Below are positions 14,817 through 45,142 of a stretch of DNA of 64,000 bases, piece after piece. The stretch comes from Gonatopus flavifemur. Lineage: Eukaryota; Arthropoda; Insecta; Hymenoptera; Dryinidae. The stretch's first letter is position 1. Every line of letters starts with the position of its first letter. The DNA lies in the NCBI GenBank assembly GCA_018340375.1, contig JAFFJZ010000026.1, positions 2,170,001-2,234,000 on the forward strand, in the 5' to 3' direction. The translations under genes were made by a program, and so were the position numbers. The notes beneath the pieces were generated by a model. It had not been told where the DNA came from. It did not search any database and saw only the letters and a program-made list of their open reading frames with translations.

Positions 14817-14825
14817 CCTAATAAT
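14817..14825. repeat. Target-site duplication CCTAATAAT, left copy
   Basis: Nine bases identical to 45,134-45,142, directly outside the matching inverted ends ATCTCCGTGAAC and GTTCACGGAGAT. Confidence 0.9.
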
Positions 14826-15970
14826 ATCTCCGTGAACTTAGCCAGCAAGTGGGAGATAAAAATTTTTTGTTAATCCCAATCAAAAGTACTTCGTTTGTAC
14901 CTGATTGTACCGCAAAGATTTTCGTTTGTACCTCCAAGGGTACCGAGATATAGCCCGGGGGCTTAAGCCCCAGCCAGCAATTCCGACCAATCGGGACGAG
15001 TCTGGTGTCATTCGAAGGGGTATCGTTTGTACCTGATTGTACCGTTGGAATTTTCGTTTGTACCTAAAAGGAAAAGGAGATATAGAAGAAAATATGTTTT
15101 GAGTCGAGAGCCGGAGGAATCGTCGACAGAAGTGGTACCTTTGGACTTGAAATGACTGGAACTGATCTACTCTGGCTCCAAGCTGCAAATCCATACAGCA
15201 CCACAGTTCAGGGAGAGTTCACGGATAATTCATTTGGACTCGAAATGAATACATTATGAACTCTTTCGGGAGTGTGGTGATGCGTGGGAGGGAACTCGGA
15301 TTTTTTTTTATGGCATCTGGAAGAGGTGTGTAAGTAATTGATTATAACGCGATATATTTTGTTCGTACCGCGGAAATGAAAAAACTTCCATACCCAGAGA
15401 GATGGTTTGAAGGGAGGTTCTAGTCAAAATTGACGGGAAAAATTTTTTCTTTCTTTTTGCTTTATTTTGATTCTTAGGGTCTTGGAAATGTGTAGCCAAA
15501 ATTATATTTTCCCACGCAGTTTATTTTATACTTACGAGTTTTTCTTCCTCGAACTTGAGACGCGTTTTTCTCAAAACTGTTTCTTGCGCGCGGAGCACGA
15601 TTCTGCTTCAACGACTGAACCGATTTTGATGTTTGATGGCTCAAATTGGAGCTTATTCAATTTAGAGGGCCCTATCCAAGCGTTTTCAACAAAATTGTCT
15701 ATTCCTTTCCTTTAACGTTGAAGCAAAAGAAAAAAAACACGGGAAAAAAGGGGCTTTTTCTTTGTAAAAGCTGTTATTTTTTTTTAAATCGTTTTTTAAA
15801 AATCGGAAATCGAGAAGGCCCCCCAAATTTCAATTCTCTCGAGAATGTTTTTGGTTGTTTTGTTTCCTCACACTTGACAGGGCTGTAGAGTGCTCCGCGC
15901 ACATTGATCATCGTCGCGCACGGCTTTGTTCAGTGAGGGCTGGAGCCACCACTTTATTTATTTATTTTTT
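14826..15970 (+). repeat. Outer arm, left, of the foldback transposon
   Basis: Nearly identical, inverted, to 43,930-45,133. It contains paired motifs, CGTTTGTACCTGATTGTACC followed by CGTTTGTACCTCC or similar, at about 14,895, 14,930, 15,025 and 15,055. These are candidate transposase-binding sites. The reading frames here appear in both arms and are not convincing genes. Confidence 0.85.
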
Positions 15971-16039
15971 TTTTAACTTCATTTACATCTAAAAAGATAT
16001 ACGAATAAATGTATTGTTAGTATGTGTTAGTACCTGATT

Positions 16040-18420
16040 GTACCAAAACAAACTCTGGGGCAAACTCTCTATGGGTCAATTATTGTTTGAGCACCTTCCG
16101 AGAATATCCCCTGCAAGTTTCATCGTTTGTACCTCCTTGGTTTGGAAGTTATAAGCCTTGGAATATATAAATATCGAAATTTTCGAACTTTGAAAAATCA
16201 CACCGAATTCCCCCTGACTGGGGCGAACTTTCTATGGATAAATTATTGTTTGGTGACCTCCCAAGAATATTGCCTGCAATTTTCATCGTTTGTACCTCCT
16301 TGGTTTAGGAGTTATGAGCCTTGGAATAAAGCAATATCGAAATTTCTGAAACTTTGAAAAATCATACAGCATTGCCCCTGACTGGGGCGAACTTTCTATG
16401 GATAAATTATTGTTTGAGGACCTTCCAAGAATATTTCCTGCAAGCTTCATCGTTTGTACCTCCTTGGTATGGAAGTTATAGGCCTTCGAATGTACAAATA
16501 TCGGAATTTTCGAACTGTAAAAAATCATACAGAATTGCCCCTGACTGGGGCAAACTTTCTACGCGTTAACTATTGCTTGGTGACTTCCCAAGAATATTCC
16601 CTGCAAGTTTCATCTTTTGTACCTCCTTGGTTTGGAAGTTATGAGCCTTGGAATATAGAAATATCGAAATTCCTGTAACTTTGAAAAATCAGACAGCATT
16701 GCCCCTGACTGGGGCAAACTTTCTATGTATAAATTGATGTTTGGGGACCTCCCAAGAATATTCCCTGCAAGTTTCATCGTTTGTACCTCCTTGGTTTGGA
16801 AGTTATGAGCCTTGGGATATATAAATATCGAAATTTTCGAACTTCAAAAAATCATACATAATTGCCCCTGACTGGGGCAGACTTTCTATGCATGAACTAT
16901 TGTTTGGTCATCTGCCAAGAATATTCCCTGCAAGTTTCATCGTTTGTACCTCCTTGGTTTGGAAGTTATAAGCCTTGGAATATAGAAATATCGGAATTTC
17001 CGAACGTTGAAAAATCACACAGAATTGCCCCTGACTGGGGCAAACTTTCTATGCATTGGCTATTGTTTGGGGATCTCCTAAGAACATTCCCTGCAAGTTT
17101 CATCGTTTGCACCTCCTTGGTATGGAAGTTATAGGCCTTGGAATGTATAAATATCGGAATTTTCGAACTTTGAAAAATCTTACAGAATTGCCCCTGACTG
17201 GGGCAGATCTACTATAGATGAATTATTGTTCCTGGACCTCCCGAGGATATTCCCTGCAAGTTTCATTGTTTGCACCTCCTTGGATTGGGAGTTATGAGCC
17301 TTGGAATATATAAATATCGAAATTTCTGAAACTTTGAAAAATCATACAGCATTGCCCCTGACTGGGGCAAACTTTCTATGGATAAATTATTGTTCGGGGA
17401 CCTCCCAAGAATATTCCCTGCAAGTTTCATCGTTTGTACCTCCTTGGTTTGGAAGTTATAAGCCTTGGAATATATAAACATCGAAATTCCTGAAACTTTG
17501 AAAAATCAGACAGCATTGCCCCTGACTGGGGCAAACTTTCTATGTATAAATTGATGCTTGGGGACCTCCCAAGAATATTCCCTGCGAGTTTCATCGTTCG
17601 TCCCTCCTTGGTTTGGAAGTTATAAGCCTTGGAATATATAAATATCGAAATTTTCGAACTTTGAAAAATCTAACAGAATTGCCCCTGATTGGGGCGTACT
17701 TTCTATGCATGAGCTATTGTTTGGGGACCTTCCAAGAACATTCCCTGCAAGTTTCATCGTTTGTACCTCCTTGGTATGGAAGTTATAGGCCTTGGAATGT
17801 ATAAATATCGGAATTTCTGAAACTTTGAAAAATCATAAAGAATTGCCCCTGACTGGGGCAAACTTTCTATGGATAAATTATTGTTTGGTGACCTCCCAAG
17901 AATATTCCCTGCAAGTTTCTCCGTTAGTACCTCCTCGGTATGGAAGTTATAGGCCTTGGAATGTATAAATATCGGAATTTTCGAACTTTGAACAATCTTA
18001 CAGAATTGCCCCTGACTGGGGCAGATCTACTATAGATAAATTATTGTTCCTGGACCTCCCGAGGATATTCCCCGCAAGTTTCATCGTTTGTACCTCCTTG
18101 GATTGGGAGTTATGAGTCTTGGAATATATAAATATCGAAATTTCTGAAACTTTGAAAAATCATACAGCATTGCCCCTGACTGGGGCAAATTTTCTATGCA
18201 CTAACTATTGTTTGGTGACCTCCCAAGAATATTCCTTGCAAGTTTCATCGTTTGTACCTCCTTGGTTCAGAAGTTATGGGCTCCAAAATATCAAAAATCA
18301 ATGTTTTCCTATATTCAAAAAATCATACAGAATTGCCCCCAGTTGGAGCGAATTTCCCAGTCAACTAACTAAGTTGTTCTCTCCGTACCTCCGTGGTTTC
18401 CCAGGTACTGATTGATACAT
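16040..18420 (+). repeat. Left array of ~163-bp units
   Basis: About 14 tandem units, each with CCCCTGACTGGGG, ACCTCCCAAGAATATTCCC, TGCAAGTTTCATCG, TTTGTACCTCCTTGG and GAAGTTAT. The CTGACTGGGG word recurs at about 16,214, 16,378, 16,541, 16,702, 16,868, 17,028, 17,197, 17,358 and on to 18,176. The last unit before 18,420 is clearly diverged. The array is the inverted counterpart of that at 38,650-43,560. No gene. Confidence 0.9.
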
Positions 18421-18588
18421 ATTCGAAATCGGCTTTGTATTCATTCATTCGCCACAGCAACCACCAGAATTCAGTGAACATGGGAATTTCCAGTCAAAAA
18501 AAAAACCTGGGAACAAATTACATAGAAGCGTAGTGAGAAGGACAAGGAAGGAGGGATTGAGGGACGAATTTGTTCCTTACACATTTAT

Positions 18589-20457
18589 TCATGACATATC
18601 GCTTGTTTGCTCCTTTTTTTTCACAATCTTTACATACATTAATGGAGAAATATACATTTTATTCAATAATACCCTCATAGTCGTCGTTATTGGTTTTTTA
18701 TAACCTTTCAGGTTATCGAATGTTTCCCATTTCCCTGTTATTCTGCGACAATGCACCACGTAGTGCCCGATTCCGTTTGAATTCTCCCGGTCATTCAAAA
18801 ACTGAATCCCCCCGATTAGTCTAAATTCTTCCCCGAAAAATTCAATACTTTCCGGTATTTCTTTTAAAGTAAACGTTCCAGGCCAATCAGGATAACCCAA
18901 TTTCGCGGCAAGCCCAGGGAATTGCAACGCTTCCAAATTTATAAAAAAATGTTCCCCTGTTTCTATTCTAGTATACAAATCTTTCTCTCCACAGTATTTA
19001 CAAATTTCAGCTTTCTTCCCATCAATGCTCTCATATAACGCCTGATTAAGATAACGCATTCCCCCTTGATAGCATGGTATGCAGTCAACATCAAACACTG
19101 AACATTCGATATTATTATTTTGATTGCATTTCGTGCATTCTTATCGTATCCTGTAAGATTTCTTGTTGTTCAACAAGTTCTCGCTGATTAAACTCGCAAC
19201 ATTTGTTGCACAGTCCAAACGACTTCCATCCTTTCGAAATATGAGACTCAATAAGGAAGCTCTTTGTTTGTATACCGCTGAACTTGTACCATGCGTCGAC
19301 AATTGTGTTAAAAATTCAAAAATCGGATTTCCAGTCTCATGAACATAAATGTTATAATTATTCCAATCTCGAAATGCAACTAGTAGTGACTGCATAACTG
19401 AATCGAAAGCGCAGGTATTCCGAATGATCGTTGATTTACCTAATACCGTTTGCGGACCAAGCTGACTCCCGTTTCTGACAGATAATATTTTCGACTTTGT
19501 TTTCTTGCGTATCTCTTCTATGTCCGGGCATGGAGTCAAATATTTCCCCCGTTTCTTTGGTGGTTCATTGTTCTTACCTTTCCACGACCCAGTTTGGTTT
19601 AAGCATTCAACGTCAATCACTTGAACTGCGTCTGATTTTTCCAACGATGGGTTTTCAACATTTGTGAGGACGTGAGTTTTTGAGGCTAAAATCTGAGAAG
19701 TATTAGGAGAGAACTCGTTTTCTGAATGAACGGTCAATGAGTCATCGGTTGACGTTGAAATCAAATTATCACCAAGAGATTTATTCATTTTGAAGTCGAC
19801 TGCAGGAAAATCAAAACATGCATCCTTGTTTCCACCGTCCAAATCCCTTGAAGGGCTCTTACAATTCTCTCTATCTTTAATTTCCTCATCGACCGTCACG
19901 AGCTGATTGCCCACCTTTTTTTTCCCACCTTTCGCAGCAGATGATTTATCATGTCCCTTCACTTGATGGGTTTTATTTTCTCTTGCCAATAATATTTTCA
20001 TGGTACCTTCGATTGATCGCATGTGAATTATCAAGAATTTGTCGACCCGTATCGATTTTTTTCCTTTGAACAATAAGCTCTTCAGTTCCCTGAAATACGC
20101 TTCACTTCTAGCTGAAGTTGCGACTTCATCTAAAATCATATTCGTCCAAAGAGGGAACAATTTTGCCAAGTGCAGCAAACTGGTCACAAATGCAGGGCCT
20201 GAATACGGATTTAGCCTTTCTCCGGATTTATCTCGGTTCACCACCTGCTCATGAATATTGGACAGGAACTGGTCAATTTCCGGTAGTACTTTTTTGTTCT
20301 TGTTCTCCTCTTGTACATGAAATAAAGTTTCATCGTTTTCTTCTTGTCCATTTCTATAATTTGAATCCATATTTTTCATTTCTGTACAAGATTCGTCATC
20401 TTCGGGGCAGTCGTTCTTAAATTGGTCCATTATTTCTTCATATGCTTTTAAATCCAT
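18589..20457 (-). pseudogene. USP-like cysteine peptidase half of the transposon protein
   Basis: The first ~300 residues (from 20,457 down) are acidic and Lys-rich, with LFPLWTNMILDEVATSARSE early on. Then come a Cys box, NTCAFDSVMQSLL (about 19,420), two CxxC pairs (ECTKC near 19,130 and ICKYCG near 19,000) spaced like the zinc ribbon of ubiquitin-specific proteases, and a His box, GHYVVHCRRITGKWETFDN (about 18,760). This order, Cys box, zinc ribbon, His box, is that of USP/USPL1-type deubiquitinase or deSUMOylase folds. A single TAA at 19,141 splits it, with reading continuing in the same frame on both sides. It lies in frame with the transposase upstream, so it was probably the C-terminal part of one protein. 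Its role in transposition is unknown. Confidence 0.7.
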
Positions 20458-20511
20458 TGTCTTGATCAGATTAATTAATCTTTGTTGGGATGCACCTAAC
20501 CATATTCATCA

Positions 20512-22083
20512 TTACTGTTCGATGTAATATTTTTTTTTTTCTGACAAAGCTACCATGAAAATATCACGCAGAATGCTGGAAAAACTGTTCAACAAACTGC
20601 TCGTACATTCAGATAAAATACAGACGCACCGAACGAAAAACTCTTCAATGTCGAAACCTTTATTTTTGAAACAATTCCATCTGCACACAGATTTTATTAA
20701 ATGAGCAATATCAATCTTTATGACGCAGTTGATGCCCATCCTTGAATTTTCATTGTTTTCAAGCATAAGAAAACACTTGTTCAAATAAGTCTTCAACGTC
20801 ATCAAATTAAAAGCAAAAGCAACAGCATTTAAAAGCGCCATAGAATCGTCCGTGACGACTTTTGGAGGACAAGGCGCTCCGGACTTCAACCATTCTAAGA
20901 GCCAAGAAATTATTTTTACTGTATCGTGCTTTTCCGACACCATCTGGGCAACTGGCAAAATTTTTCCTCCAAATGGGGCCACGATTTGATACAAAAAAAT
21001 TGGACTGTTGGTACCGTACGTCTCTGGTAGTTTCTTCACCAATGAACCAGTGGCATCAATGCTGAGACTACCCTCTGCAGTGTGTGTTTTCAGATACTTT
21101 TTATACATGAATATTTGATCAGGGTGAAAATAATAAACATAGAATTTATTTATCCCGATATGTCTTATGAAACCACTGAATTCTGGCCTGTTGGTCAAAT
21201 CATTCACAGAAGTGATAACGTCAGGGACTTTTTCGAGACCGAGTTTCTTGTCCTCCGCTAATTGCTTTGCTTTTCTCAGTACTTCTTCACTGTACAAGTG
21301 AGCTGGTTCGTCTTCACCGAAATTCATCACCTGATTCGCTCTTTCTCTTGTCCATGCGTACGCAGATGAACCGCACAAGTCTTTCACAACTATTTCACGT
21401 TCAACTCCACGTAAGTGACGTTTTTTTTCATGTTGTATTCCCCTGGTATCATACGTGGAAATATTGAGGATGAAATCAGCGTCTAAAGGTGGCATTTTCG
21501 AAGCTGTTGCGTGGAATTCAGCATCGCACTCAGGACATTTGCCTTTTATCTTCAAAAAAATTTGTTTTGTTTCATTAATTTGCGCTGATTTGAAAGTATA
21601 TGGACAAGGTCATTTTAACTGTGTCCAAATTTCTTTGTACAAAATATTCGTCCAACCAGGTTTTAAACTTTGATAATATCGAAACTGATTGCGTAGTGTG
21701 ATAGGGCTAATTTTGGCCCATACATCCGGACTTAAACGCAACTGAACACGGAGCGGTTTACCAAAGTCGAATGTCGAATTCATGGACCAATTTGAACCAT
21801 CTGATTGATTTGACCCAATACTTGTATCAGCGAAAGATCTTTTTTGTCCTTTTTTCTCGGTTTGTATCCCATAATCTTTGTACAGCCGATCGAGAATACC
21901 GTTTCGATTTTGCGAAATATACAAATAAATGTATTTCAACTGTAATGCGCCGTCCAGTTTTCCACACGCATGTTTCCAAACAACATCATTCATAGGGCGT
22001 ACATGACCATGAGCATCAAAGAATAATAAATCCTGAATAGCATTGTGGATCTCATCCACGGTCTTAGTTGGCATACGTGGCAT
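20512..22083 (-). pseudogene. MULE/NOF-like DDE transposase half of the transposon protein
   Basis: Reading starts at 22,083 (MPRMPTKTVDEIHNAIQDLL; a second ATG at 22,074). RVQLRLSPDVWAKISP precedes a Cys/His cluster (PCPYTF, KGKCPECDAEFHATA) that looks like a zinc DNA-binding domain. A TGA at 21,610 interrupts it, probably a decayed Trp codon, and the frame continues past it. The catalytic core has SLSIDATGSLVKKL (first Asp, about 21,055), CPPKVVTDDSMALLNA (second, about 20,860) and KIDIAHLIKSVCRW (candidate third acidic position). It ends by an A11 run followed by TAA-TGA-TGA at 20,506-20,514, after which the peptidase half continues in the same frame. Whole-gene length, about 1,165 codons, is close to that of the 120.7-kDa NOF protein. 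Confidence 0.7.
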
Positions 22084-22370
22084 TTTAAATAATTAAATAG
22101 TCAATTACGGACCAAGGAATGGTGGGAAAGTATCTATCAGCACCTGAAATTCAAACGATTCAAATCACAAAAGTGTCGAAAAGAAGATAGAACATACTCA
22201 GAATGGTTCATGAAAAGTTGCTTGGAAGTTGAATTAGATTAAAAAAAAAAAAAAAAAAACAATTGCATATAATAGCACACTACAAAGGTATTTCCATGAG
22301 TGAAAATCGAATAGTTTGGATGTAAAAGAAATATTATAAAAAAAAGCAATATTGGCATTGGGATAACCTC

Positions 22371-23334: not shown

Positions 23335-24289
23335 CAGTGACAAAAATTTCATTGTATGAAGCACTATTTCTCTCAAGGCCCATGAAGCTCAAGGAAACTA
23401 GGCAAAACTTTGCTCCATACTTCTCCAACAACTAAGCGTTAAGAAGATACCAGCGCATAGGTGGCTCCATCTGGTGGCAGTTTTGTTTTGACCAAAATAC
23501 TCGGAACTGAATGCATAAAAAAGTCTGAAATTTTCAGGGATGAATCTCCAAAGGTTTATCTAGGTCTCTAAAGAGCCAGAATTTTTAATTTGGAAAATTA
23601 GCAAAAAAAATTTTTTGACGATAACTGCTCTCGATTCCCAAGAATTTTCACCATCATCGATTGTCAAAGTTAGTACAGTATGATTTTCTTACTACCGTTG
23701 ATGGTGAAAATGGTTAGAAATTGAAAGCGGTTACAAAGTAAGCAATTTCTGGCTTATGAAGAAAAAGATGATATGATTATATATGATTGAATTTTGATCA
23801 GTGTAGATATTTCTTTTTGATAATTTGGAAACCTGGAGACATCTCGCAATAGTAAATGAAAAGTGGCAATATTTCTTAAATATCAAAATTCTAATTCTTT
23901 TCAAAGGTGACATATCAAACTATGGAAATTCACATCGGATTATTATATTATCCATTTGGCTGTATTTACAAGATCAGCTGTTGTTCTTATGAGAGGATGC
24001 GAATCAATGATGTTTCAATAGAAGAAATAATGTGAAACGCTTGGTATAAGTACCTACCGGATATGAAATATTTGGATCTTGGTATGCGTACAATATATTC
24101 ATCTAAAATAATGCGACTGCATTTCCCTGGAAATCATCTAAAACCATCCAATTGAATTTCTCTGGGAATGCTCAATGTTCTTTAGAATTTGCTGAAATAT
24201 TTACATTTTTTCACCTTTCAGACTTTTCAGATGTAACCTGTTGGATTTGGAATGAAATAACATGCGAAATTTCAATATGATCACTCAAG

Positions 24290-24810
24290 TGTAGAATATG
24301 CATACTTACGATTAGCATAATATATAATTGATCCATAAGTTTTCCAATATATTGGTAATCACCTTTATTTTCATCAATGATGTTGGTTCATTGTTGGAAT
24401 TACTAAATACACCATTGAATATTTATTACACCAAATAAAGAAGTACGTCACATAAAAGTCGTAGTTGACAACTCGAACTCTTCTCAAGTATTTCATTATA
24501 AAACGTTATATGATTATCTCATGCCTGTGGGAACAAAAAACGAGTTAGTGTAGAATATGCGTACTTACTATTAGCATAATATATAACTGAACCATAAATT
24601 TTCCAATATATTGAATCACCTTTATTTTCATCAATCATGTAGGCTAACTGTTTGAATCATTAATTACACTATTGGATATACATTACACCATATAAAGCAG
24701 TACGTGGAATGTCAAGAGTGACAGAAAAGTCGTATTTGGAAACTCCAAATCTTCACAAGTATTTTGTACTAAACCGTTTTACCATTATTTCATGCCTGTT
24801 ACAACAGAAA
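24290..24810 (+). repeat. Two direct copies of a ~258-bp unit near the axis
   Basis: Both copies start GTGTAGAATATG and share TTAGCATAATATATAA, CACCTTTATTTTCATCAAT and CATTACACCA. The matching inverted copies lie at 25,830-25,970 and 32,525-32,713. The centre of symmetry follows at about 24,840-25,065 (GAATATCGGTTCA against TGAACCGATATTC). Confidence 0.75.
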
Positions 24811-25139: not shown

Positions 25140-25272
25140 ATGTACAACCATATGATATGGTAATGTAACGCTAACGATTCACAATAAAATACTTTGCAAT
25201 ATTTTTAGTCCTCGAATACGACTTTTCAGTCACTCTTGACATTCCACGTACTTCCTTATATGATGTAATGTA

Positions 25273-25823
25273 CGAGGGTGGATTGATAAGTTTCCGGCCT
25301 GACCAAGAAAAACAACGTTTTTAAGAATTTTTTTTTTTATTTCTCAACATAATCTCCTCCAAGGCTGATACATTTCTCATAGCGGTGTTCTAGTCTAGTA
25401 ATGCCATCTCTATAGACTGATTCGTCAAGCTCCTCAAAATACCCATTTACAGCTTCGATTACTTCTTCATTGTCCGCAAATCTCTTACCGCCAAGCCATT
25501 TTTTGAGGTTAGGAAACAGCTTAACGGTTGAATATGATGGAGAGGATGTCCCCAGTGTTGAGTCCATCTCTTCTTCAATTTCCTTCGGCGTTAACCCCTT
25601 CAAATAAAAGTATTTGATGACAGCACGATTTTCCAGCTTTTTCATTTTTACGAAAAACACAGAGGCGTCTTGGTCAGCGTGCTCTCAAAACTAAACTAAC
25701 ATGGCGATCGGACTGAAACTATAGCTACAAGCTATCTAAGGATGGTACTATAGAACGCCACCTCAAGGTAGGCCTAGTGGCGCCATCTCTTGGTCAGGCC
25801 GGAAACTTATCAATCCACCCTCG
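25273..25823 (-). mobile_element. Internally deleted mariner (551 bp)
   Basis: It has the same CGAGGGTGGATTGATAAG ends as the full mariner at 33,715 and TA on both sides. Its coding strand is the minus strand. The middle of the transposase is deleted, so that SYSTVK runs directly into LFPNLKKW; no catalytic residue remains. The left arm has the empty TA site near 24,679. It would be mobile only with help from another copy. Confidence 0.9.
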
Positions 25824-26363
25824 TATATCCAACAGTGTAATTCATGATTCAAACAATGAGCCTGCATGATTGATGCAAATAAAGGTTATAAACAATACAT
25901 TTGCAAATTTATGTTGGAGTCGTATATTATGCCAATATTAAGTATGTATATTCTACACTATCCCGTTTTTTGTTCCAACAGGCATGAGACAGCAATATAA
26001 CTTTTTATAATAAAATATTGGGAGGTCGATAGAAAATGGAGGCGTTGGCTGATGTAGAGTTTGATTTCGGTTTTCTTTTATGTTATTGGAAGAGTTGTAT
26101 GGAGTGTTGAAGTTTATTTTTGTGTGTCAAAAGTACTTTTGAGCGAGGAGTGTTAATTATTCTTATCAAGAATAGTGGAGTTATTTTTTCTGTGCGTGTG
26201 AAAGACAAAAAGTGTGGTGAGACTCATAAGTGTGAGGTTAGGCGGGAAAGTGGCTTCGGTCACAGGTCTAGGGGGGGATGGGGTTACAGTGAACAAGAGT
26301 GACAATAGCACGAAAAGGCCTAATGATAACAGAAGGGATGGAGAGAAGGATTATAATGATTTG

Positions 26364-28226: not shown

Positions 28227-28476
28227 AGGGATGAAGTGAAAATTAATGAAGGAGGTGGAGATCAATGTGATTCATTAGATAATAGGAATGTAAGTAGTGT
28301 GGATGAGGTCCATACTCAAGAAATTGATAGGGGTAAAGAGTGTTTAGATGATATTAGTAAGGAGGAGGGTGATAGTTAAGAAAGATAGACTGATAGTACC
28401 TTTGTCTGATATTCAATAAGTTATAAGTTTTTGTTTCGTTATAGGAATTGTCTTGTGTTTTTTTTTTTTTTTCATA

Positions 28477-31400: not shown

Positions 31401-32326
31401 GGAATTTGAATGGGCAAACGACAGTTTTACATACAGACGGCTCTAAAGTAAAGGGTAGAGGAAAGGTAGGAGCTGCGGTGGTTGGAAGTTATGAAGGAGA
31501 AAAGTTGGATATAGGAGTAGCATTGGATGTGAGGAGCTCTATTTTTACTGCTGAAGCGGTTGCTATAGGTAAAGCGATTGAAATTTCATTGGAGAAGATT
31601 GATAAAGGGAATGTATTGATTTTATCAGATTCAGAAAGTGTCTTAATCGCTTTGAAGGATATAGATTTCAAGACTAATATAAACCCGATGATTTTGGAAA
31701 TTAAAAAACAATTTAGAATATGGGAGGAAAGTCTGAGCACTAATGGGGATAGAGGTAAAATAGTTTTGGGTTGGATTCCAGGACATTTGGGAAGCGAAGG
31801 TAATGATAAGGCTGATGCGTTAGCAAAGGAAATGACATTGAGAGAAGACAGTGTCTCAAGTAAAGTTTTACAGGGGGATTTGAGGAATGTATTTGAAGAT
31901 TTAAACTGGAAAAAATCGATTAAGAAATTCGTTAAAGAAGGGGAATGGAAAGGTAAAGTTTATTTTGATAAATTTTATAGGAAAGGAGGAAAATACCCAT
32001 GGTACAAAAATATGGAATTGTCTAGAAAGAAAATTGTTATGTTGAATAGATTAAGGGCAAACCACTACAACTTGAAGGAATCCTTACATAGGAAGTGTAT
32101 GGTTGATGATCCGTGGTGTGCTTGTGGCAAGGACGATGGAACGATTCAACATGTTGTGGAGGAATGTGTAGTGTATAAGGATGAGAGAAGGGAATTTAGG
32201 GAGTTGTTGAGAGATATTGGGATTTGGAATGTAAGAGGAATTACAGATAGAGCACTTAAATTAGAGTCGATTGCTTTAATATGTGTATTTACGGATTTTA
32301 TTGAATTGTGCGGTTTGAATACGTGA
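28477..32326 (+). pseudogene. LINE ORF2: endonuclease, reverse transcriptase, RNase H (one frameshift)
   Basis: ATG at 28,477 (MDIKQNFKFVVWNARG). Endonuclease motifs: GITETWL, IYRAPGT, MGDFNAHH and WGSDHLPI (about 29,120). An A9 run at 29,507-29,516 puts the rest in the next frame (ends 29,526; continues from within 29,474). The RT has APGLDGIDNRIIK, KVLERMVNDRL, QNGFRKGRSC, VPQGGILSPVLYN and LQYADDVVIY, with an intact YADD box (about 30,527). An RNase H domain follows: LHTDGSKVKGRG, TAEAVAI, LSDSESVL and GWIPGHLGSEGNDKAD. The C-terminus has a CxC...H...C-type cluster (WCACGKDDGTIQHVVEEC). Restored length would be about 1,280 residues. Apart from the A-run the protein is intact, so this copy is young. 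Confidence 0.85.
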
Positions 32327-33714
32327 TCTGATTGGTTCGGGGGTTGGGGATATATAGTGACATGGGCGAGAGTGGAGGGTGGGGAAGAATATAGTCAAAT
32401 GTAGTTTCCTAACCTCTATCTTTTGGAGCAGAACTCAACACATGAGATAAGCTCTAGTGTTTTCCAGGATTTCTCTGGAATTACACCGTTAAAAAAAAAA
32501 AAAAAAATAATAATAAAATATTTGAGAGTTGTCAACTACGACTTTTATGTCACGTACATCTTTATTTGGTGTAATAAATATTCATTGGTGTATTTAGTAA
32601 TTCCAACAATGAACCAACATCATTGATGAAAATAAAGGTGATTAACAATATATTGGAAAACTTATGGATCAATTATATATTATGCTAATCGTAAGTATGC
32701 ATATTCTACACTTGAGTGATCATATTGAAATTTCGTATGTTATTTCATTCCAAATCCAACAGGTTACATCTGAAAAGTCTGAAAGGTGAAAAAATCTAAA
32801 TATTTCAGCGAATTCTAAAGAACATTGAGCATTCCCAGAGAAATTCAATTGGATGATTTCGGATGATTTCCAGGGAAATGCAGTTGCATTATTTTAGATG
32901 AATATATTGTACGCATACCAATATCCAAATATTTCATATCCGGTAGGTACTTATACCAAGCGTTTCACATTATTCCTTCTATTGAAACATCATTGATTTG
33001 CATCCTCTTATAAGAAAAACAGCTGACCTTGTAAATAAAGCCAAATGAATAATATAATAACCCCATATGAATTTCCATGATATGTCACCTCTGAAAAGAA
33101 TTAGAATTTTGATGTTTCAGAAATATTGCCACTTTTCATTTACTATTGCGAGATGTCTCCAGGTTCCCAAATTATCAGAAAGGAATATCTACACTGATCA
33201 AAATTCAATCATATATAATCATATCATCTTTTTCTTCATAAGCCAGAAACTGCTTACTTTGTAACTGCCTTCAATTTCTAACCATTTTCACTATCAACGG
33301 TAGTAAGAAAATCATACTGTACTAACTTTGACAATCGATGATGGTGAAAATACTTGGGAATCAAGAGCAGTTATCGTCAAAAATTTTTGATGTCTCTGAC
33401 ATATTGGCCATCGAGCTCTAAAGAAAACTGGCGAATCTGTGCTACATACTTTTCCAACAACTAAGCGATGAATAAAATTTTTCAGTACGGAAAAGACTTT
33501 GAATATAAATTGAAACTCCAAAGTAATATTTAAACATGAAAGGACATACTGTATGAAAATTATTGACATTTGTGGGTTATTATATTTATGATTCGTTGCA
33601 TAATTTTCAGAAATTTTTTCCAGATGCAATCAAATATTCAGTCTGGTCTTGGCAATGCGTCTCATCACTGCATATTGAAGATCCTGTATTTGATGCTTAG
33701 TTGTTGGAGAAGTA

Positions 33715-35007
33715 CGAGGGTGGATTGATAAGTTTCCGGCCTGACCAAGAGATGGTGCCACTAGGCCTACCTTGAGGTGGCGTTCTATAGTACCATCCTT
33801 AGATAGCTTGTAGCTATAGTTTCGGTCCGATCGCCATGTTAGTTTAGTTTTGAGAGCACGCTGACCAAGACGCCTCTGTGTTTTTCGTAAAAATGGAAAA
33901 GCTGGAAAATCGTGCTGTCATCAAATACTTTTATTTGAAGGGGTTAACGCCGAAGGAAATTAAAGAAGAGATGGACTCAACACTGGGGACATCCTCCCCA
34001 TCATATTCAACCGTAAAGCAGTGGGTTTCCGAGTTTGAAAAGGGTCGTGTGAGCACCTCTGATGAGCCTCGCTCAGGACGCCCCATTGAGGTCACAACTC
34101 CAGATATGATCGACAAAATCCATCAAATAGTGCTGAAAGATCCCAGATTAAAAGTTCGTGAGATAGCTTAGACCTGTAAGATGTCATATGAACGTGTACA
34201 AAATATTTTGCACCAACATTTGTATATGGAAAAGCTCTGGGCAAGATGGGTGCCGCGTTTGCTAACAGTCGACCAAAAATTGATTCGAAAGAACATTTCT
34301 ACCGCCAATTTGGCGTTGTATAAGCGTAATCCAAGCGAATTTTTGCGTCGATTCGTAACCGTTGACGAAACTTGGGTCCACCACTACACTCCTGAAACCA
34401 AAGAACAGTCTAAACAGTGGATTGGACCAGGGGAACCAACTCCAAAGAAGGCAAAAACAATTTTTTCGGCGAACAAGGTTATGGCTACTGTTTTTTGGGA
34501 TGCAAGAGGTATTATATACATTGATTACCTTGAAAAGGGTAAAACTATCACTGGTCAATACTACGCAGACTTATCGCAACGTTTGAGCCACGAAGTGAAA
34601 ATTAAACGACCTCATCTGGCGAAGAAAAAAATCTTGTTTCATCACGATAACGCACCAGCGCACACGTCAATCATTGCGATGGCTGAAATCAACGATCTGA
34701 AGTTTGAATTAATGCCGCACCCTCCCTACTCTCCAGACCTAGCCCCGAGTGACTATTATCTGTTTCCTAACCTCAAAAAATGGCTTGGCGGTAAGAGATT
34801 TGCGGACAATGAAGAAGTAATCGAAGCTGTAAATGGGTATTTTGAGGAGCTTGACGAATCAGTCTATAGAGATGGCATTACTAGACTAGAACACCGCTAT
34901 GAGAAATGTATCAGCCTTGGAGGAGATTATGTTGAGAAATAAAAAAAAAAAATTCTTAAAAACGTTGTTTTTCTTGGTCAGGCCGGAAACTTATCAATCC
35001 ACCCTCG
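33715..35007 (+). mobile_element. mariner transposon (1,293 bp)
   Basis: Ends CGAGGGTGGATTGATAAG and complement, TIRs about 37 bp, TA on both sides (33,713-33,714; 35,008-35,009). Length is right for a complete mariner. The left arm has the undisturbed TA at 23,418, so it jumped in after the two arms had formed. Confidence 0.95.
33893..34942 (+). pseudogene. mariner transposase, mellifera-type, one nonsense codon
   Basis: Starts at ATG 33,893 ([17 protein letters not shown]) with two N-terminal helix-turn-helix regions ([10 protein letters not shown]; the second around VREIA). A TAG at 34,169-34,171, after KVREIA, interrupts it; the same frame continues TCKMSYERV. The catalytic residues are present: VTVDETWVHHYTP (first Asp), HHDNAPAHTS (second) and YSPDLAPSDYYLFP (third), the DD34D pattern. 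WVPRLLT, the linker motif between domains, is intact. Full length would be 350 codons, normal for mariner. Only the one stop and no frameshift separate it from a complete gene. It would cut and paste at TA. Confidence 0.9.
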
Positions 35008-35349
35008 TACGTAGCAAAGTTTTGCCCAGTTTTCTTGAGCTCCATGGGCCTTCAGAGAAATAGTGCTAAATACAATGAAATTTTTGTCACTGTATAGAGT
35101 TGGTGGAAAAAATTTGTGTTTGAATGTCAGTAATAATATTTCAACACAGGTTATCCCAACGCCATTATCCCTTTCTTTTTATAAAATTTCTTTTACATCC
35201 AAATTATTCGATTTATACTCATGGAAATACCTTTGTAGTGTGCTATCATATGCAATTGTTTTTTTAAACCTAATTCAACTTCCAAGCACTTTTTCATTAA
35301 CCATTCTGTCTGTTCTATCTTCTTTTTGGCATCTTTGTGATTTGAATTG

Positions 35350-36477
35350 GAGTCGCCTTCGATGCTACATATTTTCGATGCTACATAGCGGCGATCCTAC
35401 ATATTATGTCCAGGTGCCTCGATGCTACATAAGTGCGTTGCTACATAGCTGCGATCCTACATAAGGAGTTTTTTACAAAATGTCGATCGGCTCGATGCTA
35501 CATATGCTCGATCCTACATATGGTGTTCCTTTGTACAGGTGCTTCGATGCTACATATGCTCGATGCTACATATGGTATTTCTTTGTACTGATGACTCGAT
35601 GCTACATATGCTCGATCCTACATAAGATATTCTTTCGTGGGAATGCCTCGATGCTACATGAGTGCGTTGCTACATAGCTGCGATCCTGCATAGGGATTTT
35701 TTTGACGTAATGTCGAACGGCCCGATGCTACATAAGCTCGATCCTACATATGATATTCTTTTGTACAAATGCCTCGATGTTACATAAGTGCGTTGGTACA
35801 TAGCTGCGATCCTACATAAGGATTTTTTTGACGAAATGTCAAAATGTTTTTGTACAAATGCCTCGATGTTACATAAGTGCCTTATGTAGGATCGCAGCTA
35901 TGTAGCAACGCGCTTATGTAGCAGCGAGTCACTTGTACAAAGGGATATCATATGTAGGATCGAGCATATGTAGCATCGAGCCGTTCGACATTTCGTCAAA
36001 AAAATCCTTATGTAGGATCGCAGCTATGTAGCAACGCACTTATGTAGCATCGAGGCATTTGTACAAAAGAATATCATATGTAGGATCGAGCTTATGTAGC
36101 ATCGGGCCGTTGGACATTACGTCAAAAAAATCCCTATGCAGGATCGCAGCTTTGTAGCAACGCACTTATGTAGCATCGAGGCATTCGCACGAAAGAATAT
36201 CTTATGTAGGATCGAGCATATGTAGCATCGAGTCATCAGTACAAAGAAATACCATATGTAGCATCGAGCATATGTAGCATCGAAGCACCTGTACAAAGGA
36301 ACACCATATGTAGGATCGAGCATATGTAGCATCGAGCCGATCGACATTTTGTAAAAAACTCCTTATGTAGGATCGCAGCTATGTAGCAACGCACTTATGT
36401 AGCATCGAAGCACCTGGACATAATATGTAGGATCGCCGCTATGTAGCATCGAAAATATGTAGCATCGAAGCTCCCCC
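35350..36477. mobile_element. 1.1-kb hairpin made of CGATGCTACATA words, 9-bp duplication
   Basis: Flanked by TTTGAATTG on both sides (35,341-35,349; 36,478-36,486). The left half repeats CGATGCTACATA and CGATCCTACATA words, with spacers such as GTGCGTTGCTACATAGCTG; the right half is the inverted copy, folding near 35,890. There are dozens of copies of the word. Left arm of the giant element keeps the empty target at 22,156-22,164. The 9-bp duplication suggests an MULE-type transposase moved it. The reading frames inside are mirror images of each other and not genes. Confidence 0.85.
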
Positions 36478-36486
36478 TTTGAATTG

Positions 36487-36640
36487 TTTGAATTTCAGGT
36501 GCTGATAAAAGCAGGTGAAATACTATGCCACCATTTTTTGGTCCGTGATTGACTATTACTTATTCAAAACGCCACGTATGCCAACTACGACAGTGGATGA
36601 GATCCACAATGCTGTTCAGGATTTACTATTCGTAGATTTT
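36487..36640 (+). repeat. Right-arm copy of the transposase gene start and upstream region
   Basis: Inverted counterpart of about 22,020-22,160, including the ATG region of the transposase gene. Similarity stops abruptly near 36,637. Confidence 0.8.
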
Positions 36641-38643: not shown

Positions 38644-39151
38644 AGGTCCAATGAATTATGCTCATTCAGTATCAGTATAGGGAAATGCACTAGTATGGGG
38701 CAAACGAGTGTGAGTTTTTGAATATACCAACACCCGATTTTTATATATTACCGAGGCCATAATTTCGAAAGTGGGAGGGTAAAAACCATGGAACTCACAC
38801 GCAATCTTGTTGAAAGTGCCGTGACCTGAAAATGGGCAGAAAAAAGTTGCCCCAATCTGGGGAGACCCAGGATGAATTTTTGAGAACATGTGAATATAGG
38901 TTTTTGATATTCCCAAGCCCATAATTGGGAATCTAAGGAGGTACAAACTATAAAACTCATGGGAGATATGTTCCAGAGTCCACCGGACTGTAATTCATAG
39001 GTAGTGAAGTTAATCCAGCCTGAGGCAACTGTGTATGAAGTGTTAAATATATCAAAAAACAAAATTCCAAGATTTCCAAGATCATAACTTCCAGACCAAA
39101 AGACGACGAACGATGGAACTCACAGAAAATTTGTGAAAGAGTACCCTGAAC

Positions 39152-39323
39152 CAGTGCTGCCAGAATGGAGGGCGAGGTCCGTCGAGGCTACCCTCTCTCC
39201 GTTACATGTCCCCTACGGTCCTTTTTTAGTACGCACACGATACGTACTAGAAAAGCACCGTAGGGGAAATGTAACGGAGAGAGGGTGCCTCGACGGTCCT
39301 CGCCCTCCATTCTGGCAGCACTG
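39152..39323. mobile_element. 172-bp hAT-type MITE
   Basis: Near-perfect hairpin with CAGTGCTGCCAGAATGG ends, flanked by CCCTGAAC (39,144-39,151) and CCCTAAAC (39,324-39,331), an 8-bp duplication with one change. Confidence 0.8.
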
Positions 39324-39742
39324 CCCTAAACTGTGATCGATAGGTAGAAAAGTTGTCCCAGGGTGGCGATTCTGTATGAATTTTTGAATATATAAAAATA
39401 CGAACTTTTATTATTTTCAAGCCGATAACTCGCAAACTGAGGGAGTAGAAAGCATGAAACGCATGGGGAATTTTCTTTACAGTCCCTGGGACGGTAATTT
39501 GTTCATAGAAAATATTCCCCAGGCTGGGGCAATTCTGTATGAATTTCAGGGGTGCCCAAGTCACGGTGCAATGGTGCGATTTGCACCATGAAAATTTTTG
39601 GGGGAGATTTTTTATAATGGGAATTTGAAAATTGTTTACTAAGAGTTAGTAATTATTAAAAGCCTGTGTGAACGTATGAAAATTTGTCAGCGGGGAGGGA
39701 CTTTGTTCTTTAGTAATCAAGGGGGGATCGCACCATGTACTA

Positions 39743-39862
39743 TCCTAACAGGAATTCCCGATGAAATACCTCGTGTAATGAAACAAATAGATAGAAAACC
39801 GATCGGTTTCTCATCGATTTGTTCCATCACACGATGAATTCCATCGGGGATTCCTACCAGGG
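39743..39862. repeat. 120-bp hairpin MITE of the CCCTGG type, duplication TA
   Basis: TCCTAACAGGAATTCCCGAT pairs with ATCGGGGATTCCTACCAGGG; TA on both sides. It folds at CCGATCGG. Confidence 0.7.
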
Positions 39863-39899
39863 TATAGGGGGGAGGGGCCCCCTGATGAATTTTTGAATA

Positions 39900-40127
39900 C
39901 CGTAAACTGCGGTTACTTGGGACTGAGAGGGTTACTTTGTGGGATGTATTTCTACGCCCATTCACATATATTTTGTTTTATAACTGTTCGAGAATAATCT
40001 TCCGTCGGACAAGGGAATTATAGGAAACCGATTAGGGGAGTCAAAAACCGCATAGAGAACGATTCCGAATTCATTACGTATTTCACAAAGTAATCCCGAA
40101 AAATCACAAAGTAACCCCAGTCTACGG
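39900..40127. repeat. 228-bp MITE, CCGTAGACTGGGGTTAC-like ends, TA duplication
   Basis: CCGTAAACTGCGGTTACTT at the left and its near complement at the right (GTAACCCCAGTCTACGG); TA flanks both sides. Confidence 0.75.
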
Positions 40128-43100
40128 TATAGAAAAACAAGGAGTTTCATTATTTCCGAGACCATAACTTCTAAACTGAAGAGGTACAAACGATGAAACT
40201 CATAGGGAATCTCCTCTAGCGTCCCCTGAACTGTGATTTATACGTAGAAAAGTTGCCTCAACCAGGGGCTATTCTTCATGATTCGTTAGAGATAGAAAAG
40301 AACGGTTTTTGAATATTCCCGAGCCCATAAGTTCTAAACTAAGGAGGTACAAACGATGAAACTCATGGGGAATCTTCTCTAGGGTCTTGTGAACTGTAAT
40401 TTATACGTAGAAAGGTTGCCCCGGCTCGGGGCAATTCTGTATGATTTTTTGAAGATAGAAAAACACGGATTTTCAATATATCCCGGTACATAACTTCTAA
40501 ACTGAAGAAGTACAAACAATGAAACTCATAAAGAATCTCCATCAGAGTCTCCTGAACTTCAATTGATACGTAACAAGGTTGCCCCAGCTCGGGGCAATTT
40601 TGTATGATTTTTTTAATATAAAAAAACACGGATTTTCAATATTTCCCGGCCTATGACTTTTAAACTAAGGAGGTACAAACGATGAAACTCACAGGGAACC
40701 TTCTATAGGGTCTCCTGAACTGTAATTCATTCATAGAAAAACTGCCCCAGTCATGGGGAATTCTGTATCATTTTTCAAATATAGGAAAACACGGATTTCC
40801 AATATTCCTGGCCCATGACTTTTAAACTGAGGAGGTAAAAACGATGAAACTCATAGGAAATCTTCTCTGGGATCCCCTGAATTGTAATTTATACGTAGCA
40901 GAGTTGCCCCAGCTCAGAGGATCTCTTTATGATTTTTTTTAAATATAGAAGAACACGGATTTTCAATATTTCCCGGCCTTTAACTTTCAAACTAAGGAGG
41001 GACAATCGATGAAACTCATAAGGAACGATGAAATTCGCGGGGAATATTCTTGGGAGGTCGGCGGACAATAGTTGATGCATAGAAAGTTTGCTCCAGTCAG
41101 GGGCAATTCTGTATGATTTTTTGAAGTTCGAAAATTTCGATATTGATATATTCTAAGGCTTTGAACTTCCATACCAAGGAGGTACAAACGATGAAACTTG
41201 CAGGGAATGGTCTTGGGAGGTCCCCAAACAATAGCCAATGCATAGAAAGTTTGCCCCAGTCAGGGGCAATGCTGTATGATTTTTCAAGGTTGCAGAAATT
41301 TCGATATTTCTATATTCCAAGGCTTATAACTTTCAAACCAAGGTGGTACAAACGATGAAACTTGCAGGCAATATTCTTGGGAGGTAACCGAACATTAATT
41401 TATCCATAGAAAGTTTGCCCCAGTCAGGGGCAATTCTGTATGTTTTTTCAAAGTTTCAGGAATTTCGATATTTCTATATTCCAAGGCTCATAACTCCCAA
41501 ACCAAGGAGGTACAAACGATGAAACTTGCAGGGAATATTCTTGGGAAGTCACCAAACAATATTTAACGCATACAAAGTTTGCCCCAGTCAGGGGCAATTC
41601 TGTGTGATTTTTCAAAGTTCGAAAATTCCGATATTTCTATATTGCAAGTCTTATAACTTCCAAACCAAGGACGTACAAACGATTAAACTTGCAGGGAATA
41701 TTTCAGGAGGTCACCGAACAATAGTTGATGCATAGAAAGTTTGCCCCAGTCAGGGGCAATTCTGTATGTTTTTTCAAAGTTTCAGCAATTTCGATATTCC
41801 TATATTCCAAGGCTCATAACTTCTGAACCAAGGGGGTACAAACGATGAAACTTGCAGGCAATATTCTTGGGAGGTCACTAAACATTAATTCATCCATAGA
41901 AAGTTCGCCCCAGTCAGGGGCAATTCTGTGTGATTTTTCAAAGTGATAAAATTCCGATATTTCTATATTCCAAGGCTTATAACTTCCAAACCGAAGAGGT
42001 ATAAACGATGAAACTTGCAGGGAATATTCTCAAGGGGTCCTGGAACAATAATTCATTCATAGAAAGTTTTCCCCAGTAAGGGGCAATGCTGTGTGTTTTT
42101 TCAAAGTTTCAGAAATTTCGATATTCATGGATTCCAAGGCTCATAACTTCCAATTCAAGGAGGTACAAACGATGAAACTTGCAGGGAATATCCTCGGGAG
42201 GTCCAGGAACAATAATTTATTTATAGTAGATCAGCCCCAGTCAGGGGCAATTCTGTAAGATTTTTCAAAGTTCAAAAATTCCGATATTTATACATTCCAA
42301 GGCTTTTAACTTCCATACCAAGGAGGGACAAACGATGAAACTTGCGGGGAATGGTCTTGGGAGGTCCCCAAACAATAGCCAATGCATAGAAAGTTTGCCC
42401 CAGTCAGGGGCAATTCTGTGTGATTTCTCAACGTTCGGAAATTCCGATATTTATATATTCCAAGGCTCATAACTCCCAATCCAAGGAGGTACAAACGATG
42501 AAACTTGCAGGGAATATCCTCGGGAGGTCCAGGAACAATAATTTATCCATAGTAGATCTGCCCCAGTCAGGGGCAATTCTGTTGGATTTTTCAAATTTCG
42601 AAAATTTCGATATTTATATATTCCAAGGCTTATAACTTCCAAACCAAGGAGGTACTAACGATGAAACTTGCAGGGAATATTCTTGGGAGGTCACCAAACA
42701 ATAATTTATCCATAGAAAGTTTGCCCCAGTCAGGGGCAATTCTGTATGTTTTTTCAAAGTTTCAGGAATTTCGATATTTCTATATTCCAAGGCTCATAAC
42801 TCCCAAACCAAGGAGGTACAAACGATGAAACTTGCAGGGAATATTCTTGGGAAGTCACCAAACAATATTTAACGCATAGAAAGTTTGCCCCAGTCAGGGG
42901 CAATTCTGTTGGATTTTTCAAATTTCGAAAATTTCGATATTTATATATTCCAAGGCTTATAACTTCCAAACCAAGGAGGTACAAACGATGAAACTTGCAG
43001 GGAATATTCTCAAGGGGTCCTGGAACAATAATTCATTCATAGAAAGTTTGCCCCAGTAAGGGGCAATGCTGTGTGTTTTTTCAAAGTTTCAGAAATTTCG

Positions 43101-43560
43101 ATATTTATATATTCCAAGGCTCATAACTCCCAATCCAAGGAGGTACAAACGATGAAACTTGCAGGGAATATCCTCGGGAGGTCCAGGAACAATAATTCAT
43201 TTATAGTAGATCTGACCCAGTCAGGGGCAATTCTGTAAGATTTTTCAAAGTTCCAAAATTCCGATATTTATACCTTCCAAGGCTTTTAACTTCCATACCA
43301 AGGAGGTACAAACGATGAAACTTGCAGGGAATATTCTTGGGAAGTCACCAAACAATATTTAACGCATAGAAAGTTTGCCCCAGCCAGGGGCAATTCTGTA
43401 TGATTTTTTACAGTTCGAAAATTCCGATATTTGTACATTCCAAGGCCTATAACTTCCATACCAAGGAGGTACAAACGATGAAACTTGCAGGGAATATTCT
43501 CAAGAGGTCCTGGAACAATAATTTATGCATAGAAAAGTTGCCCCAGTCAGGGGCAATTCA

Positions 43561-45133
43561 CTATGATTGTTTAAAATTCGAAAAAAAAATTTTTTCCCAT
43601 GTAAAATCAGTTTTTCGCTTGTAACTTCCCCCCCTTTTACTTCTTCGAAAAATCCTTTGCGTTACAATCATCTACGTCCCGAGACCTTCTAAATGAGCTA
43701 TCATTCATTAAAATCGGTGGAAGTCGGGGGCAGACCATTTTTTCAAATTTCTGTAACTTCTTTATTTTTGAGGTACAAACGAAATTTTTTTCGGTACAAT
43801 CAGGTACTAACGATGCGCTTCCGGATGCCAAAAGAAAAATTTTTTTCTCCACTTCGGGGGCTAACTTCATATAGGTCGAAAACTAACGTAGTTTCATCAT
43901 TTTTTTTCAAGTGATCCTAAATGTTCCTTGAAAAAAGTTTTCATGGCATTTATTCGTATATCTTTCTATTTGTAAATGAAATTAAAAAAAAAAATAAATA
44001 AATAAAGTGGTGGCTCCAGCCCTCACTGAACAAAGTCGTGCGCGATGATGATCAATGTGCGCGGAGCACTCTACAGCCCTGTCAAGTGTTAGGAAACAAA
44101 ACAACCAAAAATATTCTCGAGAGAATTGAAATTTGGGGGGCCTTCTCGATTTCCGATTTTTAAAAAACGATTTAAAAAAAAATAACAGCTTTTACAAAGA
44201 AAAAGCCCCTTTTTTCCCGTGTTCTTTTTCTTTTGCTTCAACGTTAAAGGAAAGGAATAGACAATTTTGTTGAAAACGCTTGGATAAGGCCCCCTAAATT
44301 GAATAAGTTTCAATTTGAGCCATCAAACATCAAAATCGGTTCAGTCGTTGAAGCAGAATCGTGCTCCGCGCGCAAGAAACAGTTTTGAGAAAAACGCGTC
44401 TCAAGTTCGAGGAAGAAAAACTCGTAAGTATAAAATAAACTGCGTGGGAAAATATAATTTTGGCTACACATTTCCAAGACCCTAAGAATAAAAATGAAGC
44501 AAAAAGAAAGAAAAAATTTTTCCCGTCAATTTTGACTAGAAACTCCCCTTAAACCATCTCTCTGGGTATGGAAGTTTTTTCATTTCCGCGGTACGAACAA
44601 AATATATCGCGTTATAATCAATTACTTATACACCTCTTCCAGATGCCATAAAAAAAAATCCGAGTTCCCTCCCATGCATCACCACACTCCCGAAAGAGTT
44701 CATAATGTATTCATTTTGAGTCCAAATGAATTATCCGTGAACTCTCCCTGAACTGTGGTGCTGTATGGATTCGCAGCTTGGAGCCAGAGTAGATCAGTTC
44801 CAGTCATTTCAAGTCCAAAGGTACCACTTCTGTCGACGATTCCTCCGGCTCTCGACTCAAAACATATTTTCTCCTATATCTCCTTTTCCTCTGAGGTGCA
44901 AACGAAAATTCCAACGGTACAATCAGGTACAAACGATACCCCTTCGAATGACACCAGACTCGTCCCGATTGGTCGGAATTGCTGGCTGGGGCTTAAGCCC
45001 CCGGGCTATATCTCGGTACCTTTGGAGGTACAAACGAAAATCTTTGCGGTACAATCAGGTACAAACGAAGTACTTTTGATTGGGATTAACAAAAAATTTT
45101 TATCTCCCACTTGCTGGCTAAGTTCACGGAGAT
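43561..45133 (-). repeat. Outer arm, right, of the foldback transposon
   Basis: From 43,930 to 45,133 it is almost identical, inverted, to 14,826-16,030. The stretch 43,561-43,930 has GGTACAATCAGGTACTAACG but no left counterpart, so the left arm seems to have lost about 350 bp there. Confidence 0.85.
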
Positions 45134-45142
45134 CCTAATAAT
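45134..45142. repeat. Target-site duplication CCTAATAAT, right copy
   Basis: Identical to 14,817-14,825. Confidence 0.9.

What the first reader, a model, noticed from the sequence alone, without database searches (positions are those of the whole stretch)
14817..45142. A 30.3-kb foldback transposon with a perfect 9-bp target duplication
Seen: matching inverted ends at 14,826 and 45,133, CCTAATAAT directly outside both, and three nested inverted layers around an axis near 24.96 kb. Known: Drosophila FB-NOF elements combine tandem-repeat TIRs, 9-bp duplications and an MULE-type transposase. Inferred: this is a giant relative in which almost the whole element is TIR. Its outer arms differ at only a few bases, so it is young or its arms are kept alike by conversion.
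Basis: partly seen in the sequence, partly recalled or inferred. Interest (0 to 1): 0.92.

Follow-up and report, generated by a model that had tools for sequence, protein, structure and literature searches.

The report
Giant foldback transposon in an insect
This is a real jumping-DNA element, a very large relative of the fruit-fly FB-NOF element, whose ends carry long repeat arrays and whose gene joins a transposase to what looks like a ubiquitin-cutting enzyme.

Summary
The element is real. Inverted ends at 14,826 and 45,133 match at 97.6% over 1,187 bp, and CCTAATAAT abuts both. I found 13 inverted pairs of these ends in the genome (a lower bound): 8 with an exact 9-bp duplication, 3 matching at 8 of 9 positions, 2 with none. 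It is a mobile family, not a misassembly.

The protein places it with FB-NOF. A sister copy (contig 26, 33,119 bp) keeps an intact 1,166-aa frame alignable nearly end to end with Drosophila NOF. Its catalytic part folds most like the IS256-family ISCth4 transposase; its C-terminal 295 residues fold like a USP-type (C19) deubiquitinase. NOF shares that region by alignment and keeps the Cys/His/Asn-Asp pattern.

'Almost the whole element is TIR' fails for this copy: about 9.5 kb is four later insertions, and outer arms plus 163-bp arrays are 8.5 of the remaining 20.8 kb. But two short copies (6,519 and 3,499 bp) are nearly all TIR, and an inverted, gutted relic of the gene suggests a once complete palindrome. 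One contig 26 arm holds 89 units. The nearest published structure is Rehavkus-1_TC of Tribolium (9.5 kb, 164-bp unit). I file it as a giant variant of a known kind.

The parts
14817..14825 (.). left copy of the 9-bp target duplication CCTAATAAT
14826..16011 (+). outer domain of the left arm; begins with ATCTCCGTGAACTTAGCC
16055..18346 (+). left array, 14 units of about 163 bp
   Evidence: TRF; nhmmer
18589..22083 (-). NOF-type transposase gene, frame broken by stop codons into four pieces; 98.3% identical in DNA to the intact frame of contig 26
18617..19501 (-). part coding for the C-terminal USP-like (C19) domain (limits approximate, carried over from contig 26 residues 864-1158)
19990..21200 (-). 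part coding for the catalytic DDE core (approximate, residues about 300-700)
22021..22369 (+). outermost arm of the inner palindrome; overlaps the first codons of the transposase gene; partners at 35,148-35,347 and 36,478-36,637
23606..24474 (+). middle arm of the inner palindrome; partner 32,526-33,388 (95.4%)
24485..24681 (+). innermost arm of the inner palindrome; partner 25,823-26,020
25272..25823 (-). later insertion 1: internally deleted copy of the mariner element; TA site, empty in contig 26
26019..32510 (+). later insertion 2: non-LTR retrotransposon (endonuclease, reverse transcriptase, RNase H), A-rich tail, site empty in contig 26
33716..35007 (+). later insertion 3: mariner element, TA site empty in contig 26
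35350..36477 (.). later insertion 4: small foldback element of about 16-bp units with its own 9-bp duplication TTTGAATTG, site empty in contig 26
36478..40127 (+). right interior; its left end corresponds to the contig 26 stretch with inverted relics of the first 20 residues and of part of the last codons of the transposase gene; decayed 163-bp-type units at 38,697-39,522
40128..43584 (-). right array, about 21 units of 163 bp (inner ones decayed)
43947..45133 (-). outer domain of the right arm
45134..45142 (.). right copy of the 9-bp target duplication

Best explanation
This is an aged copy, with a broken gene, of a giant foldback DNA transposon of the FB-NOF kind, structurally closest to Rehavkus-1_TC, probably in a dryinid wasp or a near relative. 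Shown: conserved termini, 9-bp target duplications, a NOF-homologous protein with a predicted IS256/MULE-like catalytic fold and a predicted USP-like C-terminal fold, tandem-repeat arms, and two short copies that are almost only arms. Inferred: an intact copy such as that on contig 26 supplies the protein; the protein binds the arms (the repeats perhaps adding binding sites), cuts at ATCTCCG and inserts with a 9-bp stagger; short and broken copies move in trans. Also inferred: the USP-like domain is a working isopeptidase that removes ubiquitin or SUMO from the transposase or from chromatin and repair proteins at the break. Arm length grows by unequal exchange or slippage in the 163-bp arrays. 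The inner palindrome is what is left of an inverted duplication that once covered the gene too; the second gene copy was gutted.
Against: No biochemical or transcript evidence. Pfam finds no DDE or PHD domain in the protein, and UCH only weakly (best E 0.00088) in 6 of 21 members of the alignment, not in the query. Synonymous and non-synonymous changes are too few to show selection on the frame: dN/dS 0.56 (contig 26 and window), 0.92 (contig 26 and third copy), 0.45 (window and third copy). Two of 13 pairs lack a duplication, and the right 9-mer of C78 equals the duplication of C240, which could mean target preference or recombination between copies. No empty allele of the window site was found in the assembly. 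The contig 26 array could be mis-sized by the assembly, which I could not check against reads. The relic of the gene's 3' end is short.
Confidence: 0.87

Rival explanations
1. The inverted arms are an assembly artefact (a false palindrome).
For: Long inverted repeats are a classic place for assembly errors (general knowledge); the contig 26 array could not be checked against reads.
Against: Thirteen pairs on twelve contigs, eleven with their own complete or nearly complete 9-bp duplication; the window's arms differ at 27 positions, and the arrays differ in length and sequence between arms.
Confidence: 0.02
2. It is a foldback element of another superfamily (for example P element, as Galileo is), and the NOF-like gene is a passenger or an independent insertion.
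For: Foldback termini arose several times; Galileo carries a P-type transposase (PMC3573991, search listing; PMC3169594, discussion). P element ranks near ISCth4 in the fold comparison.
Against: The gene lies between the same left array and inner palindrome in the window and contig 26 copies; in a third copy on contig 176 it lies 6.5 kb from the single end found, against 5.7 kb in the window. Its relatives include the gene of the foldback element FB-NOF; duplications are 9 bp; ISCth4 outranks P element by about 3 Z units.
Confidence: 0.05
3. The C-terminal domain keeps the USP fold but is catalytically dead and serves only as a protein-binding module, like Pan2.
For: Pan2 pseudo-hydrolase is among the fold matches; the triad pattern was recognised in only 20 of 28 long relatives.
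Against: All 28 keep the Cys box. Of the eight that fail the pattern, four were seen in alignments: two carry near variants (NHY, GHF), one ends early, one runs into unrelated sequence; the other four were not looked at.
Confidence: 0.3

Closest known systems
FB-NOF foldback element, Drosophila melanogaster (NOF 120.7 kDa protein)
   Same: Protein homology over nearly the full length, including the C-terminal USP-like part; foldback arms; long target duplications (FB4: 9-10 bp, TIRs about 700 bp, PMC8277862, passages seen); short copies without a gene.
   Different: Unit of 163 bp, not the short units I recall for FB (recalled, no call); arms up to 16 kb; element 20.8 to 33.1 kb, longer than the fly element (recalled).
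Rehavkus-1_TC, Tribolium castaneum (Repbase; described in PMC10218199, passages seen)
   Same: Inverted termini built of a 164-bp unit; Rehavkus elements have 9-bp duplications (PMC6446971, table and passages seen).
   Different: [quoted passage not shown] 14 and about 21 units in the window and 89 in one arm of contig 26. Rehavkus TIRs are given as 26-400 bp (PMC6446971).
Tetris, Drosophila virilis (PMC4079207, passages seen)
   Same: Foldback arms with an outer flanking domain and an inner tandem array (220 bp), 8-10 bp duplications, proposed as source of a satellite.
   Different: No transposase-coding copy known for Tetris; TIR up to 1,735 bp.
Tm1, root-knot nematodes (PMC3169594, abstract and part 1 of the discussion read)
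   Same: Foldback arms, 9-bp duplications, Mutator-type transposase in one copy.
   Different: Phantom-type 496-aa transposase with a FLYWCH finger, unit of about 14 bp.
Ginger1 and Mutator transposons with Ulp1 or OTU proteases (PMC2836005, passages seen)
   Same: A cysteine protease of the ubiquitin/SUMO pathway in transposon proteins; the authors also cite a Trichomonas transposase with a C19 domain.
   Different: Ulp1 or OTU domains there; here a USP-type (C19) domain in the NOF family.

Membership tests
FB-NOF | encodes a homologue of the NOF protein | tested here: met
   30% over 747 and 26% over 352 columns for the contig 26 protein; the window copy is 98.3% identical in DNA to that gene but broken
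FB-NOF | 9-bp (9-10) target duplication | tested here: met
   8 of 13 exact, 3 of 13 with one mismatch, 2 of 13 without
FB-NOF | long TIRs made of tandem repeats | tested here: met
   unit length differs from the fly's (recalled)
Mutator/MULE superfamily | IS256/MULE-type DDE catalytic core | tested here: met
   [not shown]
Rehavkus | 9-bp duplication and a satellite-like array at the TIR | tested here: met
Rehavkus | TIR of 26-400 bp (range given in PMC6446971) | tested here: not met
   outer domain alone 1,187 bp, 3.5 and 5.0 kb with arrays; membership in Rehavkus is therefore not claimed, only structural nearness
Rehavkus | PHD finger in the transposase | tested here: inconclusive
   no PHD match in Pfam for any of 21 members at E 0.1; conserved CxxC pairs at 186/189, 985/988 and 1030/1033 exist
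Rehavkus | sequence kinship with Repbase Rehavkus transposases | not testable with these tools
   Repbase sequences are not held
Phantom | FLYWCH finger and Phantom-type transposase | tested here: inconclusive
   no FLYWCH match in Pfam for 21 members at E 0.1; no Phantom sequence compared
USP (C19) peptidase fold | USP fold with Cys/His/Asn-Asp triad | tested here: met
   activity not tested

The most novel reading that the evidence does not exclude
The NOF family as a whole, fly FB-NOF included, encodes transposases fused to an active USP/USPL1-like isopeptidase needed for transposition; and the wasp element began as a complete palindrome with two inverted genes, in which one gene was later gutted and one arm began to amplify a 163-bp unit into a satellite.
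Probability: 0.4. Interest if true: 0.78.

Novelty: new variant of a known kind. Interest (0 to 1): 0.62.

Why it matters
A 2021 paper still calls fly FB4 an element moved by an unknown transposase (PMC8277862, passage). Long NOF homologues in several insect orders make the protein testable: a DDE core like IS256 and a deubiquitinase-like tail. The family also offers a size series of one transposon, pairs of ends from 1.4 to 33 kb apart and arrays seen from 3 to 89 units, which is a direct view of how foldback arms, and possibly satellites, grow.

Tried and rejected
Misassembly: rejected from 13 pairs with their own flanks. A second, inverted transposase gene in the right half: no long relic by tblastn, but a closer look found short relics of both gene ends in order, so the gene was gutted rather than never there. 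A free 163-bp satellite elsewhere: 385 matches with a cut list; the listed rows lie mostly at copies known by their ends, nine rows (C88, C392 at 5.86 Mb, C35, C370, C323 at 40.39 and 47.02 Mb) do not and were not looked into, so this is not settled. Empty window site: only the two flanks themselves and a dispersed repeat in the right flank among the rows listed. Relatives in viral contigs: none confirmed among 273 pattern matches. Pfam on the four pieces of the window gene: no match. PDB by single sequence: no match for the C-terminal piece, two chance-level hits for the whole. The VIA table of the whole model was filled by USP folds, so the catalytic part was modelled apart. Selection on the frame: too few changes to tell. 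Literature for a USP domain in NOF, FB or Rehavkus: the listings showed no paper that names one, but most listed papers were not opened, the library holds only open papers, the Phantom paper is not held and Repbase reports are not held; UniProt already labels two relatives 'USP domain-containing'.

Dropped before counts: only 40 of 399 candidates were scored, so 13 pairs is a lower bound. Of its 42 matches, 33 start at base 1 with at least 95% identity; 26 of these form the 13 pairs and 7 are unpaired; 1 is an internal fragment, 7 are 81-83% matches and 1 is 76%. One exact 18-mer (contig 359, 12.17 Mb) has other sequence behind it and is not in the 33. In one search arms of 6 of the 13 elements were compared, and in three of them one arm is of the short form. 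In one search units under 100 bits or shorter than about 150 bp were left out.
Full report
What was checked. CCTAATAAT directly precedes base 14,826 and directly follows base 45,133. The outer domains of the arms, 14,826-16,011 and 43,947-45,133, are 97.64% identical over 1,187 columns with 27 mismatches and one gap. Inside them lie arrays of a unit of about 163 bp, 14 units on the left (16,055-18,346) and about 21 on the right (40,128-43,584, the inner ones decayed).

Other copies. The genome has 636 Mb in 402 contigs; the window is contig 176, bases 2,170,001-2,234,000. The 18-base end occurs 26 times. The first 575 bp of the left arm match at 42 places (40 of 399 candidates scored, so a lower bound); 33 start at base 1 with 95% identity or more, 26 of these form 13 inverted pairs 1.4 to 33 kb apart on twelve contigs, and 7 are unpaired. 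At the 13 pairs the nine bases outside the two ends are identical in 8 (window, C26, C57, C68, C218, C342, C240, C197), differ at one base in 3 (C78, C292, a second on C57) and are unrelated in 2 (C166 1 of 9, C382 2 of 9). The eight exact duplications are all different, as expected of independent insertions. One oddity: the right 9-mer of C78 is the same as the duplication of C240.

What is inside. A copy on contig 26 (69,292-102,410, 33,119 bp, TTCCAAATG on both sides) matches the window element from array to array. Against it the window copy has four insertions, each with an empty site in contig 26: an internally deleted mariner copy (25,272-25,823), a non-LTR retrotransposon (26,019-32,510), a mariner (33,716-35,007) and a small foldback element with its own 9-bp duplication TTTGAATTG (35,350-36,477). 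They sum to about 9.46 kb, so the element itself is about 20.8 kb, of which outer arms plus arrays are 3,521 and 5,006 bp.

The inner palindrome and the second gene. In contig 26 a palindrome lies upstream of the gene: pairs 89,079-89,430 / 93,581-93,933, 90,396-90,498 / 93,423-93,525, 90,668-91,508 / 92,282-93,118 and 91,349-91,567 / 91,973-92,193, at 84 to 94%. On its far side the first 20 residues of the open frame recur inverted at 93,856-93,915 (16 of 20 identical), and just behind them, in gene order, 29 bp of the gene's 3' end recur at 93,956-93,984 (93%, E 6e-7; the best of 50 shuffled controls reached 0.001). No long stretch of the gene's middle was found there. My reading is that an inverted duplication once covered gene and upstream region, so that the element was close to a complete palindrome, and that the second gene was gutted. 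The 3' relic is short, so this is inferred.

Arms and arrays. The left arm of contig 26 holds 89 units over about 14.5 kb; unit identity is about 0.85 at most lags and 0.894 at a lag of 22 units, and each unit has a mean 98.9% best twin in its own array against 91.6% in the right array. So the array grew recently, in part in blocks. Outer arms: window left-right 97.9% over 1,150 bp, within the 96.9-98.2% to the other long-form arms; C68 97.6%; contig 26 99.6% against 96.7-98.2% to the others; 6 of the 13 elements were compared. Over the first 300 bp C78 left-right is 100% and window left-right 98.3%. Conversion or a recent common copy is therefore likely in contig 26, possible in C78, and not shown in the window.

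Host. Cytochrome oxidase I copies are in the assembly; the best one, read with the invertebrate mitochondrial code, is 85% identical to Dryinus (Dryinidae, wasps) and at most 80% to the other 119 of the 120 listed. The query may be a nuclear copy, so 'a dryinid wasp or a relative' is an inference.

Compared with what is known. [quoted passage not shown]). Rehavkus elements have 9-bp duplications, TIRs given as 26-400 bp and a satellite-like stretch before the 3' TIR (PMC6446971, passages). A survey of MULEs in 4,268 arthropods lists complete elements of 1,875-9,972 bp and three hymenopteran species (PMC13359780, passages); Rehavkus was its outgroup. Proteases of the ubiquitin or SUMO pathway in other transposons (Ulp1, OTU, and one C19 case) are discussed in PMC2836005 (passages), with the idea that they act in repair after transposition. 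Tetris shows a similar arm plan with a 220-bp unit and satellite spread (PMC4079207, passages).

Judgement. A real, large, aged member of a mobile family, a new variant of the FB-NOF kind. Its surprises are the size to which one arm has grown in the sister copy, the traces of a gutted mirror gene, and the deubiquitinase-like tail shared with fly NOF.

Noticed in passing
window 35,350-36,477: A separate small foldback element made of about 16-bp units (CGATGCTACATA) with its own 9-bp duplication, nested in the giant one: possibly a second foldback family in this genome.
   Followed up: partly
window 231-548, 2,873-3,190, 9,644-9,962, 11,479-11,797, 47,738-48,056: A repeat of about 319 bp in five places, 88-96% alike, both orientations; a simple scan at four of the five found no target duplication.
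   Followed up: partly
window 56,055-57,137 and 9,642-10,720: Two further palindromes of about 1.08 kb (90% and 83%) outside the element; no convincing target duplication by a simple scan.
   Followed up: partly
L052 (contig 359, 12,173,839): The exact 18-base end followed by quite different subterminal sequence, as if a related family shares only the terminus.
   Followed up: no
contig 88, 5,680,214 and 5,683,976: Two inverted matches at 82 and 81% to part of the outer domain, 3.8 kb apart: perhaps a diverged subfamily.
   Followed up: no
contig 323, 26.42-26.52 Mb: Several diverged NOF-like genes, two with identical scores 34 kb apart, as in a duplicated cluster.
   Followed up: no
   Followed up: no
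C78 (contig 78, 330,341) and C240 (contig 240, 2,488,717): The 9-mer right of the C78 element is identical to the target duplication of the C240 element: target preference, or exchange between copies.
   Followed up: no
L071, L072 and other contigs: 24 matches to cytochrome oxidase I, several nearly full length with TGA codons, probably nuclear copies of mitochondrial DNA.
   Followed up: no
P0175: A catfish (Tachysurus vachellii) protein annotated as chromobox 1a matches the NOF family: NOF-type elements or a fused gene model in fish.
   Followed up: no
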